The position numbers and the translations under genes were made by a program. A stretch of 64,000 nucleotides of DNA from Bacillus sp. ISL-45 (GTDB lineage: Bacteria; Bacillota; Bacilli; Bacillales; Cytobacillaceae), in contig NZ_JAGGQQ010000004.1 of the NCBI RefSeq assembly GCF_018613195.1, forward strand, positions 149,375-213,374, read 5' to 3'. Below are positions 1 to 51,780 of this stretch, in pieces. Under the pieces are notes generated by a model. It was given only the letters and a program-made list of their open reading frames with translations. It had not been told where the DNA came from and ran no database searches. How positions within the stretch are numbered: the stretch's first letter is position 1; every line of letters begins with the position of its first letter.

Positions 1-383
1 GGGTATCTTTATGCGCGAATCTTACCCTTATGCGAGCTTCTACCTTTCTATAAGGGTAGCTTTCGGTGCGAATCGTACCCTTATGCGGCCCTCCCCCCTC
101 TTCATAAGGATATCTTTCGGTGCGAATCGTACCCTTATGCGGCCTTCTACCTCTTCATAAGGGTATCTTTATGCGCGAATCGTACCCTTATCCGGCCTTT
201 TACCTCTTCATAAGGGTATCTTTATGCGCGAATCGTACCCTTATGCGGCCTTCTACCTTTCTATAAGGGTATCTTTATGCGCGAATCGTACCCTTATGCG
301 GCCTTCTACCTTTCTATAAGGGTACCTTTATGCGCGAATCGTACTCTTATGCGGCCTTCCCCCTCTTCATAAGGATATCTTTC
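1..383. repeat. Tandem array of a 53-bp unit with inverted arms (about seven copies)
   Basis: The motif TAAGGG/TAAGGA recurs at 51, 105, 158, 211, 264, 317 and 370, giving a period of 53-54 bp. A typical unit reads GTACCCTTA, 18 bp of loop, CATAAGGGT (or TATAAGGGT), then about 17 bp containing TTTATGCGCGAATC or TTTCGGTGCGAATC. The arms are reverse complements, so each unit can fold into a hairpin. Copies differ by point changes in the loop and tail. The array runs off the left edge of the window, so its full length is unknown. No reading frame is conserved. It lies downstream of ymdB. The same arm spacing is seen at 49561-49795. Confidence 0.93.
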
Positions 384-522: not shown

Positions 523-1320
523 TTAATCATAAAAAGGGTGATCTTCGTTAATAAGGATTTTTTGGATTTTCACTGCTTTGCCAGTCTTTTTATCCAAATC
601 TATCAATACTGCAGACAGCTGGTTCCTTCCATCCTTGGCTACTTCGAAACGTGTTGGCAAACTTGTCATGAACCTTCTTAGGACCGCTTCTTTTTCTACT
701 CCCAATATACCATCATATGGCCCGGTCATGCCTACATCGGTAAGAAAAGCTGTACCAGAGGGCAAGATCCTGTCATCTGCTGTCTGGACATGAGTATGCG
801 TACCGACCACAGCGGAAACTCTCCCATCAAGATACCAGCCCATCGCCTGCTTTTCGCTAGTTGCCTCAGCATGGAAATCGACGAAGATGAGGGAAGTGCG
901 TTTGCTAGCTTCCTCAATCAATTCATCTGCTTTTTTAAATGGGCAATCTATTGGTGTCAAGAAGGTACGGCCCTGTAAGTTGATTATTGCCAGTTCTTCC
1001 TGGTTGACCTTTAAATAAACAATTCCTTTTCCGGGTACTTCTTCAGGGAAATTAGCGGGCCTGACCAGATATTTAGCATTATCGATGAATTCGAAAATAT
1101 CTCGATTATCCCATGCATGGTTGCCTAAAGTTACAGCCTGTGCGCCCTGTTCGAGAAATTGCCGGTAAATCTTTTCGGTAATCCCTTTTCCGCTCGCTGC
1201 ATTCTCACCATTTATGATGGTAACAGTCGGACGAAATTTCCCCTTTAGCTTTGGCAGGTATTCCGTAACCATATCCCGTCCAGGCGAACCTACAACATCC
1301 CCTACAAATAAAATCCTCAT
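523..1320 (-). CDS. ymdB: YmdB family metallophosphoesterase (cyclic nucleotide phosphodiesterase)
   Basis: Protein of 265 residues, the usual YmdB length. The N-terminus MRILFVGDVVGSPGR carries the first metal-binding Asp. GENAASGKGIT, the GNHAWDN motif near residue 67 and GTHTHVQTAD near residue 173 give the remaining metal ligands of the calcineurin-like fold. In B. subtilis YmdB hydrolyses cyclic nucleotides in vitro and acts in the switch between motility and biofilm gene expression; that role here is inferred from orthology. The gene follows rny as in B. subtilis but has its own extended -10 promoter. The start is supported by GAGGATAT just before the ATG. A tandem repeat array lies downstream where spoVS would be expected further on. 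Confidence 0.93.
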   Translation of the reverse strand: MRILFVGDVVGSPGRDMVTEYLPKLKGKFRPTVTIINGENAASGKGITEKIYRQFLEQGAQAVTLGNHAWDNRDIFEFIDNAKYLVRPANFPEEVPGKGIVYLKVNQEELAIINLQGRTFLTPIDCPFKKADELIEEASKRTSLIFVDFHAEATSEKQAMGWYLDGRVSAVVGTHTHVQTADDRILPSGTAFLTDVGMTGPYDGILGVEKEAVLRRFMTSLPTRFEVAKDGRNQLSAVLIDLDKKTGKAVKIQKILINEDHPFYD

Positions 1321-45002: not shown

Positions 45003-48000
45003 TTAGAATAACGACAATTGGTTTTGGTCAGGCATGCCCTCAAGACAGCCATGATTGTCGAGGTATTCCAGAATCGTCTTGGAGATTTTCCCTCGCTGCT
45101 GCAGGTCTTCCTTGGAGAGGAATTCTCCTTCTTCACGTGCTTTGACGATATTAATCGCTGCATTCGTTCCGAGTCCAGGTATCGCATTGAATGGCGGTAT
45201 AAGCCTATCGCCTTCGATAATGAACTCTGACGCACTCGATTTGTACAGATCAACCTTTGCAAATCCAAATCCACGCTCACACATCTCAAGCGCGAGTTCC
45301 ATTACGGTCATCAAATTTTTCTCTTTTGTCGAAGCGTCAAGCCCCTTGGCGCTGATTTCTTCAATCACCGCCCGGATGCTCTCGGAACCGCGGACCATTG
45401 CATCGACATCAAAGTCATCTGCCCTGACTGTGAAGTATGCTGCATAATACATGAGCGGATGGTGAACTTTGAAGTACGCGATCCTTACGGCCATCAAAAC
45501 GTAAGCAGCGGCGTGAGCTTTTGGGAACATATACTTGATCTTTTTGCACGAATCGATGTACCATTCAGGAACTTTATTCTTGCGCATTTCTTCTTCCATT
45601 TCATCCGTCAAGCCTTTACCTTTACGAACAGATTCCATGATCTTAAACGCAAATGCCGGCTCCAGTCCCTGGTAAATCAGGTAAACCATGATATCATCAC
45701 GGCAGCCGATTACTTCGCTGAGGTTACAAATATTGTTATGGATCAATTCCTGGGCATTTCCAAGCCATACATCTGTACCGTGGGAAAGACCTGAAATCTG
45801 TACGAGTTCAGAGAATGTCGTCGGCTTTGTGTCCTCAAGCATCTGGCGAACAAATCTGGTTCCGAATTCCGGAATCCCGAGTGAGCCGGTCTTGGACATT
45901 ATTTGTTCCTCAGTCACACCCAGCGATTCTGTTCCGCTGAAAATCTTCATGACTTCAGGGTCATCGGTCGGAATTGTCTTAGGGTCGATTCCACTTAAGT
46001 CCTGAAGCATCCTGATCACTGTCGGGTCATCGTGCCCCAGAATATCCAGCTTCAACAAGTTATCGTGAATCGAATGGAAATCAAAGTGGGTTGTTTTCCA
46101 TTCGGACGTGCTGCTGTCTGCAGGGAATTGGATTGGCGAAAAATCAAAAATATCCATGTAATCAGGAACTACGATGATTCCGCCCGGGTGCTGGCCAGTC
46201 GTCCGCTTTACACCAGTACAGCCGGATGCAAGACGGTCAATTTCCGCACCGCGCAGCTGGAGATTATTGTCGCCCTGGTATCCTTTTACATAACCATAGG
46301 CCGTCTTATCCGCTACAGTTCCGATTGTTCCCGCGCGGTAAACATAATCCTCACCAAACAGCACTTTTGTGTAATTATGGGCACGCGGCTGGTATTCACC
46401 CGAAAAGTTCAAATCGATATCGGGTACCTTGTCCCCTTTGAAACCAAGGAAGGTTTCAAACGGTATGTCATGTCCGTCTTTTTTATATTTAATGCCGCAA
46501 TCCGGGCAGTCCTTGTCCGGTAGGTCAAAACCTGAACCGACTGATCCATCATTGAAGAACTCCGATTTTTTGCACTTTGGACATACATAGTGCGGCGGCA
46601 GCGGATTAACCTCAGTGATTTCCGTCATCGTCGCTACGAAAGAAGACCCTACCGATCCACGTGAACCTACTAGATAGCCATCATCCAGTGACTTTTTAAC
46701 AAGTTTATGAGAAATCAAATAGATAACGGCAAAACCATTGTCTATGATACTTTTCAATTCTTTTTCAAGGCGAGCCTCAACGATTTCAGGAAGGTCATCC
46801 CCATAGATGTCGCGGGCCATTCCGTAACTCATACTGCGCATTTCTTCATCTGCGCCTTCGATTTTCGGCGTATAGAGATCATCTTTGATTGGCTTGATGA
46901 CATCAATCATGTCAGCAACCTTGTTAGAGTTTTCTACAACAATTTCTTTCGCCTTTTCTTCTCCCAGAAACTTAAAGGCATCGAGCATTTCATTCGTTGT
47001 CCTGAAATGCACATCAGGAAGCTCATGACGATTAAGAGGGTTTGCTCCTCCCTGGGAGTTGACCAGGATTTTGCGGTAAATTTTATCATTCTCGTTCAAG
47101 TAGTGGACATTACCTGTAGCAACTACCGGCAAGTCCAGCTTCTCGCCAAGCTTGACGATATTGTTAATGATATCCTCGAGTGCCTTCTGGTCCCGTACTA
47201 ATTCCAGCTCAAGCAAGTGAGCATAAACAGCCTTTGGATGAACTTCCAGATAGTCATAGAACTGTGCTGCCTCTTCGACCTCTTCCGGACCTTTTTGCAT
47301 CATGCCTTCAAAAACTTCACCCTTATCGCATCCAGAACCAATCAGGATTCCTTCACGATGTTTATTTAAAAGTGATCGTGGGATTCGCGGCACCCTGTAA
47401 AAGTATTCAATATGGGAAATAGACACAAGCTTGAAGATGTTTTTCATACCGACTTCGTTTTTAGCCAGCAAGGTAGCATGATAAGGACGCGCTCTCTGGA
47501 ATGCTTTACCCTGGCCCATATTGTCATTCAGCTGATCGTGGTATTCCAGTCCTTTTTCCGCTGCATCCTTTAACATTTTCACCAACAGGTACCCTGTCGC
47601 TTCTGCATCATAGATAGCACGGTGGTGCTGTGTTAGTTCAATATCGAATTTCTTCGCTAATGTATTCAATCGATGATTTTTCATGTCTGGATACAGGAAG
47701 CGGCCAAGCTCCAGTGTATCGATAACAGGATTCGGCGCTTTGCCCATGCCGATCTTTTTATAGCCGACATTCAGGAAACCCATATCGAAAGAAGCATTGT
47801 GGGCAACCAGAACACAGTCACCTGTCCATTCCTTAAACTTTTCCAGTACTTCACTCACTTCCGGCGCATTGCGGACCATATCATCGGTAATGCCTGTCAA
47901 GTTGATGGTCGTTGCCGATAAACGGTGATGAGGATTAGCGAATGATTCGAACCGGTCAATGATTTCTCCGTCGCGGATTTTGACAGCTGCAAGTTCAATG

Positions 48001-49328
48001 ATTGTATCGTATACAGCTGACAGACCTGTTGTTTCGACGTCAAAAACGACATACGTATCGTCTGCCAGCAATCTGTGTGCGTCATTATAGGCGATTGGCA
48101 CACCATCATCAACAAGGTTTATTTCCACACCGTACAGGATCTTGATATCATTTTTCTTTCCTGCCCCGAAAGCTTCCGGGTAGGATTGCACAACTGCATG
48201 GTCAGTGATTGCCACTGCTTTATGCCCCCACTTTGCTGCCTGGGAAACCAGTGCACTCACAGATGACACCGCGTCCATCTGGCTCATTGGTGTATGCAGA
48301 TGAAGCTCGACTCTTTTTTCGCCTTCTGGCGCAGAATCAATTCTTCCTTTAGGTTTGATTTCATTCACGTCATTTCCAATCATAACAAGATCGCGGACAA
48401 AGGTGTCGTTCTGGATGCTGCCCCTTACCTTTAGCCACATTCCTTTTGAAATGCGCTGGTAAATGGCGGCGTCTTCCTTATCGCGTGAGAACATTTTTAC
48501 CATGATGGAGCTTGTATAGTCCGTAATTTTGAATGTCAAAAGCGTCCTGCCGCTGCGAAGCTCTTTTGTTTCGGCAAAGAATACATAGCCTTCGACGGCT
48601 ACGCGGCGCTCTTCATCAACGATGTCTTCAAGCTTGCGGAAGTCAGCATCATCCTTGATCGTAAGTCCAATGGTAACCGGGCCTTCCTGCGGCGCACCAT
48701 CTCCCTTGGCTTGTTCAGCTTCCTTCTTCTGCATCTCGATCATCGCCATCAGACCGCGTTCCTGGTCTTCTTTCTCTTTAGCCTTCATGAATTTTTCATA
48801 TTCGTCTGAAGAACTATCTTTACTTACAACCGTATCAATCGTAAGTAAAGGAAAACCAAAACTCTGGTAAATCTCGGCTATAGTGCCCCCATATTTACGC
48901 TTAAGTGCAAGTCCTTCGGCTTCATTCCTGGCTGTTAAAATGAGTTTTGTTCCCTGGATTTGCGGAACTTGCTCATTCAGGAGCTTTAACAATGGAGGCG
49001 CGATGCCATCTATTTCTTTAATGCATGACTTCCAGTAATCCAGGATTTCCTTGTCACTGATTGCCTGTTCAAGCACTTTTACCGAGTATGATATTTTCGC
49101 AATATGTGAGAAAGTCTGTTCCAGCTTGCCAATGAATGTGTTATACAGCTGACAAGGAACGATTCTTTCAAACTGGAAAAAGAAATGCCATTTCCTTGCC
49201 TGTTTCTCAATCACTACCCTGTCAATTTCAGCGTTTTGAAAATGAGTGACAATTGCATCTTCTGTTAGCTGCAGCTGCTGCAGCAGGAGCTGAAACCTTT
49301 CTTTTTTTCCCGAAGAAAGATCACCCAT
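45003..49328 (-). CDS. polC: DNA polymerase III PolC-type alpha subunit
   Basis: 1441 residues (B. subtilis 1437). Order of domains: an N-terminal domain, an OB fold, a PHP domain ([19 protein letters not shown] near residue 335) interrupted by a DEDDh proofreading exonuclease ([16 protein letters not shown] near residue 427; later [11 protein letters not shown]), a zinc finger (CPKC and CPDCG, about residues 913-943), the polymerase palm ([11 protein letters not shown] near residue 970) and a C-terminal region ending QLSLF, the beta-clamp binding motif. It is the main replicative polymerase of low-GC Gram-positives. It stands alone with its own promoter and terminator. Confidence 0.99.
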
Positions 49329-49560: not shown

Positions 49561-49795
49561 TGTACCGTTATGGGAAGTGAAGTTGTGGCTTAAAGGTGAG
49601 TATTAGACCTTAAATGTACCCTATTAGGAAGAGGTATCTCTGCATGAGGGTGTGATTTGACCCTAAAAGTACACTTACATGGAGTGAAGAGGGTGCATAG
49701 GGATCAGTTTAGCCCTAAAAATACCCTTAAGTCGGATGACGAGTCTGCATAAGGGTGTGGTTTGACCCTAAATGTACTCTATAAGGGTGCGTTTG
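49561..49795. repeat. Second 53-bp tandem array (four full copies plus a partial one)
   Basis: The phrase TGTAC (or a close variant) starts units at 49561, 49615, 49668, 49720 and 49773, giving a period of 52-54 bp. A typical unit reads (G/A)TACCCTTA, 18 bp, CATAAGGGT, then GTGGTTTGACCCTAAA. Copies are more diverged than in the 1-383 array, but the arm words and the 18-bp spacing are the same. The array occupies the polC-proS interval; no reading frame is conserved. Confidence 0.88.
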
Positions 49796-50012: not shown

Positions 50013-50044
50013 TAAAAAAAAGCGGACCCTGAAGTAGGATCCGC
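50013..50044 (-). terminator. proS terminator
   Basis: GGCGGATCC and the complementary GGGTCCGC (one bulge) with a TACTTCA loop, then TTTTTTTTATTT on the minus strand. Confidence 0.9.
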
Positions 50045-50052
50045 CAAACAGA

Positions 50053-51780
<1,728 letters not shown>

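What the first reader, a model, noticed from the sequence alone, without database searches (positions are those of the whole stretch)
49561..49795. A second array with the same 53-bp period and the same 18-bp arm spacing, almost 50 kb away
Units here have GTACCCTTA (or ATACCCTTA), exactly 18 bp, CATAAGGGT, and a period of 52-54 bp, as in 1-383. Outside the arms the two unit types share little sequence. Two independent arrays of the same plan but different filler suggest a family defined by the hairpin arms and unit length, perhaps spread by a mechanism that copies only this frame, or convergent under a structural or protein-binding constraint.
Basis: partly seen in the sequence, partly recalled or inferred. 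Interest (0 to 1): 0.75.

Follow-up and report, generated by a model that had tools for sequence, protein, structure and literature searches.

The report
Phased DNA dyad arrays in Mesobacillus
The two arrays belong to a set of repeated mirror-image DNA words, found in many genomes of the genus, whose spacing is close to whole turns of the double helix, which makes them look like docking rows for an unknown chromosome-binding protein; the repeat class is known, but its job is not.

Summary
The frame is no coincidence: the genome holds 107 places with TACCCTTAT-N18-ATAAGGGTA (<=3 mismatches; reversed control 0), 15 of 21 genomes of the genus have exact ones, and spacing is almost fixed. The kind is known: '52-nt' satellites of bacilli (Subirana & Messeguer 2021), function unknown. 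Added here: (1) arrays are inherited in place, arms diverging three-fold less than filler (units chosen by arms); (2) a second 52-bp family and more co-exist; (3) 52-bp arrays of this genus and of another (plus one of a third) share a geometry: dyad on a base, half-sites at about +3 to +17, AC at +11/+12 in 13 of 22 and 11 of 14 arrays. Half-sites lie about two and three helical turns apart. I favour binding sites for a dimeric, cooperative chromosome-binding protein, an idea those authors raised. RNA, RAYT and tyrosine-recombinase readings each failed a test, RNA least decisively. The protein is unidentified.

The parts
1..383 (.). Array 1: 53-bp dyad units (motif 1), 7 units seen; continues left into an assembly gap; lies between ymdB (its 3' end faces the array) and spoVS (outside the window)
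   Evidence: gap seen in L027; ymdB; spoVS landmark
49563..49789 (.). Array 2: decayed motif-1 array, about 4 units plus a truncated fifth, between proS and polC
   Evidence: motif-1 arms at this site in 4 of 20 genomes, own genome included
49722..49757 (.). The only unit of array 2 with near-intact arms (2 mismatches of 18)
50021..50045 (-). Intrinsic terminator-like hairpin behind proS, between proS and array 2
   Evidence: 1 found, shuffles mean 0.5;
50053..51765 (-). proS (prolyl-tRNA synthetase; name from general knowledge of the sequence), gene upstream of array 2
45003..49328 (-). polC (PolC-type DNA polymerase III alpha; name from general knowledge), gene downstream of array 2
523..1320 (-). 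ymdB-like gene whose 3' end faces array 1 (name from general knowledge)

Best explanation
The arrays are rows of binding sites for a dimeric, sequence-specific, probably cooperative DNA-binding protein that organises the chromosome in gaps between transcription units. Elementary module (supported by where arrays begin and end): two half-sites of about 15 bp that face each other over about 16 bp; modules abut with 5-7 bp, so half-site midpoints alternate at about 21-22 and 30-32 bp, close to 2 and 3 helical turns, 52-53 bp in all, roughly on one face of the helix. Shown: fixed spacing, slower change of the arms at orthologous places, a similar geometry in families with different letters and in another genus. 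Inferred: that a protein reads it, that neighbouring dimers cooperate or bridge, and that the role is nucleoid structure or insulation between genes. A protein that needs the constant spacing was already suggested by Subirana & Messeguer (PMC8161180).
For: Spacing: within the range allowed by the script (25-28), '><' is 27 in 291 of 304 and '<>' is 26 in 273 of 276 arm pairs from 51 arrays of 5 genomes; the wider N14-24 scan gave one length in 41 of 42. Selection: at ymdB-spoVS arms differ 0.129 between 15 genomes, fillers 0.382 and 0.481 (0 of 20000 permutations). Module: 28 of 41 motif-1 arrays begin and end with complete facing dyads, 2 of 41 the opposite (10 contig-edge or worn arrays left out by hand; over all 51 it is 31 against 3); motif 2 8 against 2 of 18, other arrays 11 against 5 of 29. 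Common geometry: arm identity is high from about +3/+4 to +16/+18 of a dyad on a base and low beyond; AC at +11/+12 on both arms is the top word in the arrays of other genera (11 of 14; 13 of the 14 are from one genome, G070) and among the top three in this genus (GA at +10 14, AC 13, CA 13 of 22). Place: 65 gene 3' ends against 29 5' ends face the arrays; a terminator-like hairpin lies between gene and array for 35 of the 65; nearest predicted start codon 79 bp.
Against: No protein was found and no gene-content profile could be run. Transcription of 52-nt arrays is reported for B. coagulans (PMC8625621, passages read). Arms could also be held by gene conversion between units. Units for one search were picked by their arms, which lowers arm divergence. 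The two half-sites are not identical (columns 37/53 are C-A or T-G in 30 of 46 arrays), which a simple homodimer does not predict. Three of 14 arrays of other genera and 9 of 22 of this genus lack AC at +11/+12 on both arms, and the core pattern hit 0 times in the G012 sample. Arrays turn over and are absent at some sites and species, so no single array looks essential.
Confidence: 0.6

Rival explanations
1. The arrays act as RNA: each unit is transcribed into a hairpin that regulates mRNA or sponges a protein.
For: Units fold better than shuffles (array 1 unit z -2.5 and -2.1 on the two strands; array 2 unit z -1.9 and -0.8). Outer column pair 38/52 and arm pair 1/36 pair slightly more often than shuffles (z 2.4 and 2.2). 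Subirana & Messeguer report 52-nt repeats among B. coagulans RNA reads (PMC8625621, passages).
Against: In 24 tandem-context arrays, transitions in arms are as often incompatible with G-U pairing in the direction of the flanking genes as compatible: 22 against 26 distinct events, 68 against 56 variant letters. Apart from 1/36, 38/52 and 7/30 (where one worn array is broken on both sides) no pair exceeds shuffles by 2 standard deviations, and 10/27, 11/26, 18/19 and 37/53 fall below them (z -2.4 to -3.2). Many arrays lie behind terminator-like hairpins, 17 between convergent genes. No Rfam match in the window.
Confidence: 0.15
2. REP/RAYT-like elements: single-strand hairpins moved or once moved by a Y1 transposase.
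For: Imperfect palindromes with conserved mismatches, alternating orientation, intergenic, many copies. Y1_Tnp matches occur in 18 of 21 genomes. One 52-bp array of G012 ends about 100 bp from a broken Y1_Tnp frame.
Against: G016 and G020 (99-100% complete) have 29 and 33 exact units but no Y1_Tnp match. None of the 30 fetched Y1 loci (of 47 listed matches) has a motif-1 or motif-2 unit at <=4 mismatches within about 1.5 kb.
Confidence: 0.08
3. Rows of tyrosine-recombinase core sites, one recombinase per motif family.
For: A compact reading of the dyad (two arms of 14-16 bp around 5-7 bp) resembles loxP-type sites (recalled).
Against: G007 shows several motif families in a 400-kb sample (grouped by eye) but has only 3 PF00589 matches. 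Array ends more often complete the wide dyad than the compact one.
Confidence: 0.04
4. A passive minisatellite kept going by slippage and unequal crossing-over, without function.
For: Copy number varies between species (1-19 units at ymdB); two-unit blocks repeat inside some arrays (by eye; periods of 104 and 106); relics and empty sites exist.
Against: Does not predict slower change of arms than filler at orthologous places (with its selection of units by arms), near-fixed length despite filler divergence, or a similar geometry in families with different letters and in another genus.
Confidence: 0.13

Closest known systems
52-nt tandem repeats (satellites) of Bacillus, Subirana & Messeguer 2021 (PMC8161180; parts 1-4 of 5 read, tables and supplements not seen) and J Bacteriol 2020 (not held; known only as cited there)
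   Same: Constant unit of 51-53 nt, variable sequence, several families per genome, short species-specific words with their reverse in the same repeat, partial conservation between strains, unknown function; a protein needing constant spacing, or small RNAs, proposed.
   Different: The parts read state no common internal geometry. Added here: dyad on a base, half-sites at fixed offsets, a frequent GAC/AC core in two genera (plus one array of a third), facing dyad as the module, slower arm change at orthologous places, frequent position behind terminator-like hairpins. Motif 1 has 53, not 52.
20-21 nt tandem repeats of Bacillus (same paper)
   Same: Constant unit close to two helical turns; half-site midpoints across the junction here are also about 21-22 bp apart.
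   Different: Link is only an idea, not tested here.
BIMEs / REP (PU) elements of enterobacteria, bound by gyrase and IHF (recalled)
   Same: Intergenic, 3' of genes, alternating orientation with two alternating spacer lengths.
   Different: As recalled, stems there are near-fixed in sequence; here filler is free, the period is fixed to 52-53 and the RAYT tests made were negative for motif 1 and 2.
CRISPR arrays (comparison also made in PMC8161180)
   Same: Fixed-length units with constant and variable parts.
   Different: Filler is mostly shared inside an array and units are dyads; cas genes were not looked for here.

Membership tests
52-nt Bacillus tandem repeats (Subirana & Messeguer) | Unit 51-53 nt, at least four repeats, regular length | tested here: met
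   Array 1: 53 bp, 7.2 copies. Array 2: about 4 units, irregular; not reported by TRF and it might fail their regularity filter.
52-nt Bacillus tandem repeats (Subirana & Messeguer) | Several families per genome with different sequence | tested here: met
   Motif 1 and motif 2 in G000 (107 and 47 places at <=3 mismatches); several families in 400 kb of G007.
52-nt Bacillus tandem repeats (Subirana & Messeguer) | Short conserved words and their reverse in the same repeat, specific to a species or close group | tested here: met
   TACCCTTAT/ATAAGGGTA; the exact tandem form came back in 55 stretches of the genome collection, from records named Mesobacillus (3 species), Bacillus sp. ISL-37/-41/-55, Cytobacillus oceanisediminis 2691 and Chryseobacterium sp. 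ISL-80. Contig lengths tie four of these eight to genus members G001, G006, G008, G013; the ISL-37/-41/-55 records were not tied.
52-nt Bacillus tandem repeats (Subirana & Messeguer) | Not coding | tested here: met
   49 of 51 motif-1 arrays have no ORF of the script's set (>=90 aa, longest first) across them; L020 and L027 have one, which I judge spurious. In another family (L231, G012) long frames run through the 52-bp units on the minus strand; I take them for chance frames, untested.
REP/RAYT system | Cognate Y1 (RAYT) gene in the genome | tested here: not met
   No match in G016 and G020, which carry the arrays; present in 18 of 21 genomes.
REP/RAYT system | RAYT gene flanked by the repeat | tested here: not met
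   0 of 30 fetched Y1 loci (of 47 matches) within about 1.5 kb for motif 1 or 2; one broken Y1 frame beside another 52-bp family in G012.
Tyrosine-recombinase sites | A recombinase for each site type | tested here: not met
   3 PF00589 matches in G007 against several families there; 10, 10, 15 and 8 matches in G000, G012, G020, G005.
Known RNA family (Rfam) | Match above the gathering score | tested here: not met
   0 in the window.
BIME-like gyrase/IHF binding array | Binding by gyrase, IHF or a homologue | not testable with these tools
   Needs binding assays.

The most novel reading that the evidence does not exclude
All 52-53-bp satellites of Bacillaceae are rows of one architecture: a facing dyad of two ~15-bp half-sites with an AC-type core at a fixed distance, spaced by two and three helical turns, read by one fast-evolving family of dimeric chromosome-organising proteins; the letters differ between families and species because site and protein co-evolve, and the 20-21-bp satellites may be the half-site version of the same system.
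Probability: 0.4. Interest if true: 0.82.

Novelty: new member of a known kind. Interest (0 to 1): 0.6.

Why it matters
The constant size of these satellites is described as unexplained in the 2021 paper (PMC8161180). A common site geometry turns the question 'what holds the length at 52?' into a biochemical one: which protein binds a facing dyad with this core, and does binding depend on helical phase? A nucleoid protein of Bacillaceae that reads such rows would matter for chromosome biology. The arrays also stand at the ends of several contigs, so they hamper assembly, and their copy number differs between species.

Tried and rejected
Coincidence of two arrays: rejected. RAYT/Y1 transposase as maintainer: rejected for motif 1 and 2. 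One tyrosine recombinase per family: rejected. RNA hairpins: no G-U strand bias and little compensation. Origin or terminus bias: the motif-1 places of G007 and G009 listed look spread by eye; not tested formally. Macrodomain, CRISPR and MITE readings were considered and not pursued. Literature: five searches ran; the arm word ATAAGGGTA is in 91 papers, of which the 20 listed look unrelated by title, the other 71 were not seen. No search was made for the motif-2 or GGACA words, so I do not claim that these are unprinted. The 2020 J Bacteriol paper is not held; tables and supplements of PMC8161180 were not seen.

Weak points: the core at +10 to +13 was noticed on the genus arrays first and then met in other genera. 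Of those 14 arrays 13 are from one genome, G070 (10 of its 13 have AC), and one from G036; they are not independent (five groups with and three without AC by my eye; the binomial 4.5e-5 rests on that grouping). Four G070 arrays with periods 103 or 106 were left out, as were two of the 17 (L257 motif 1, L259:5501-5699 motif 2). The dyad centre is chosen to give the best arm match, which raises arm identity by construction. The pattern scan is partly circular, since the core came from these arrays. The sampled stretches were not drawn at random: in G012 some lie near Y1 hits, and G007:740001-760000 holds a motif-1 place that one search had listed. In one search units were chosen by their arms (<=3 mismatches), which lowers arm divergence by construction; a count free of this choice was not done. 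Gene ends, directions and terminators come from a simple ORF and hairpin script, not from annotation. Names of genes beside the arrays come from general knowledge. The genus name rests, where contig lengths equal those of contigs of G001, G006, G008 and G013.

Full report
What is there. Array 2 (49563-49789) is a worn array of about four units in the frame TACCCTTAT-N18-ATAAGGGTA-N17. Its best four-unit chain matches 57 of 72 arm positions; other tiles of the window reach at most 40 (224 tiles) and letter shuffles 41 (300). Only one unit is near intact. It lies between a terminator-like hairpin behind proS and the start of polC. Array 1 (1-383) is clean, 53 bp, 7.2 copies, behind ymdB; a run of N stands just outside the window.

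Genome and genus. An open-gap scan (N14-24) of the own genome gave 42 exact places, 41 with the same length; with up to 3 mismatches 107 places and none in the reversed control. In the genus 15 of 21 genomes have exact places, 3 to 63 each; none in G002, G004, G010 (66% complete), G012, G018 and G019; the reversed control hit once, in G019. In a scan of the genome collection the exact tandem form came back in 55 stretches, from eight named genomes: Mesobacillus selenatarsenatis, subterraneus and boroniphilus, Bacillus sp. ISL-37, -41 and -55, Cytobacillus oceanisediminis 2691 and Chryseobacterium sp. ISL-80 (records near the own genome may be left out there). Contig lengths of four of them equal those of G001, G006, G008 and G013, so I read the set as one genus, Mesobacillus, with old or wrong labels; the ISL-37/-41/-55 records were not checked.

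Anatomy. I extracted 51 motif-1 arrays from 5 genomes (places listed by the searches, whose lists were cut; not a full census). Inside the script's range of 25-28, arms facing inwards are 27 apart in 291 of 304 pairs and arms facing outwards 26 in 273 of 276. From 46 arrays with full units (254 units) the half-site is GAAWSRTACCCTTATR, the rest weak. Arrays begin and end with complete facing dyads in 28 of 41 cases, the reverse in 2, mixed ends in 11; ten contig-edge or worn arrays were left out by hand, and over all 51 the counts are 31, 3 and 17. Outside the last arm the match is near background (2.5-3.1 of 9 against 2.4). So the module is probably a 48-bp facing dyad with a 5-bp junction; half-site midpoints are then about 21 and 32 bp apart. 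In the 52-bp families the same measure gives 22 and 30.

Descent. At ymdB-spoVS 16 of 21 genomes carry units 112-183 bp behind ymdB, G004 only as a relic, with related filler. Between 15 genomes arms differ by 0.129, inner filler by 0.382, outer by 0.481; units were picked by their arms, which favours this result. At proS-polC 4 of the 20 genomes with a ProRS match have motif-1 arms; G009 has a short region without an array; G001, G002, G004 and G020 show a 52-bp array or relic with other arms (by eye), and motif-2 matches lie there in G003 and G004. Clusters of flanking genes show several more sites shared between genomes. Fillers of different loci in one genome resemble each other more than letter shuffles (6.9 against 5.0 of 16 in G000) and slightly more than column shuffles (6.6).

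Other families. Motif 2, TTATCNNCACATTA-N7-TAATGTGNNGATAA in a 52-bp unit, occurs in 16 of 21 genomes at <=3 mismatches of its searched core; G011 has one weak hit, and the reversed control hit once each in G012 and G017. Its gaps are 23 (71) and 29 (79) of 165 (a script that looked for 22-24 and 28-30). It is not in the window. A scan of 1.18 Mb of G007, G012 and G018 for any period of 12-149 found 51-53 or its double in 17 of 29 arrays: 12 of 16 in G007, 3 of 4 in G012, 2 of 9 in G018. Folding 22 arrays of the genus (15 of these 17 and seven met by chance beside other loci) and 14 arrays of other genera (13 of G070, one of G036) on their best dyad gave: centre on a base in 35 of 36; arm identity high from about +3/+4 to +16/+18, with a dip at +15 in this genus, and low beyond; AC at +11/+12 on both arms in 13 of 22 and 11 of 14. 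Of the two centres the script took the one whose matched segment lies nearer. A two-unit pattern with this core hits 47 times at inner spacing 17 and period 52 (36 in G007, 11 in G018, 0 in G012) and 0-1 times at every other spacing or period tried, reversed control 0; this is partly circular. Motif 1 itself has AC one base nearer the centre.

Function tests. RNA: arm transitions 26 compatible and 22 incompatible with G-U pairing in gene direction (56 and 68 letters); three symmetric column pairs exceed shuffles (one of them through a single worn array) and four or five fall below; units do fold somewhat better than shuffles. Y1 transposase: no match in two array-bearing genomes, no motif 1 or 2 near 30 Y1 loci, but a broken Y1 frame stands beside a different 52-bp array in G012. 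Tyrosine recombinases: 3 in G007. Place: 65 gene 3' ends and 29 5' ends face arrays; a terminator-like hairpin stands between for 35 of 65, none was found for 30; gene pairs 17 convergent, 23 tandem, 3 divergent, 8 cut by contig ends (one of the divergent, L034, is tandem on inspection). No Rfam family in the window.

Reading. Near-fixed spacing close to two and three turns, slower change of half-sites, a similar geometry with changing letters, and a place mostly outside transcription units fit rows of sites for a dimeric DNA-binding protein with evolving specificity. Which protein, and what it does there, is open. The class and its constant size were described by Subirana & Messeguer (PMC8161180, parts 1-4 of 5 read; PMC6749651 outline and passages; PMC8625621 passages), who also suggested a protein that needs constant spacing; the geometry, the module and the inheritance in place are what these calls add to the parts read.

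Noticed in passing
L027 (G000 C23:146400-152800), about 2842-2980, just left of window position 1: A run of N interrupts array 1, so its true length is unknown; contigs C3, C10, C18 and C24 also begin or end in motif-1 arrays, and the genes at the C3 start and C24 end match the two sides of one site in G005 (L083).
   Followed up: partly
L231 708-1699, 5496-5908 (G012): Two arrays of another 52-bp family flank a block of about 3.8 kb; a broken Y1_Tnp frame lies about 100 bp from the first; long minus-strand frames run through the units.
   Followed up: partly
L155 2948-3988 (G004): A motif-2 array is followed closely by a second 52-bp array with related but different half-sites, as if caught in drift.
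   Followed up: no
L022 6129-6289, L097 4840-4960: Repeats of 42 or 21 bp, possibly the second satellite class of bacilli, in the same genomes.
   Followed up: no
L148 (G008), L256, L265, L268, L273 (G007): In GACAGSTTT arrays the two half-sites differ at offset 15, C on one and G on the other, a recurrent asymmetry; motif 1 keeps one at columns 37/53.
   Followed up: partly
L045 (G006 proS-polC): The intergenic region (556 bp) holds an unrelated insert instead of an array (by eye).
   Followed up: no
JAGGQZ010000005.1 and others (L159, L164): Records named Chryseobacterium sp. ISL-80 carry motif-1 arrays and one matches the length of G013 contig C32; the label looks wrong.
   Followed up: partly
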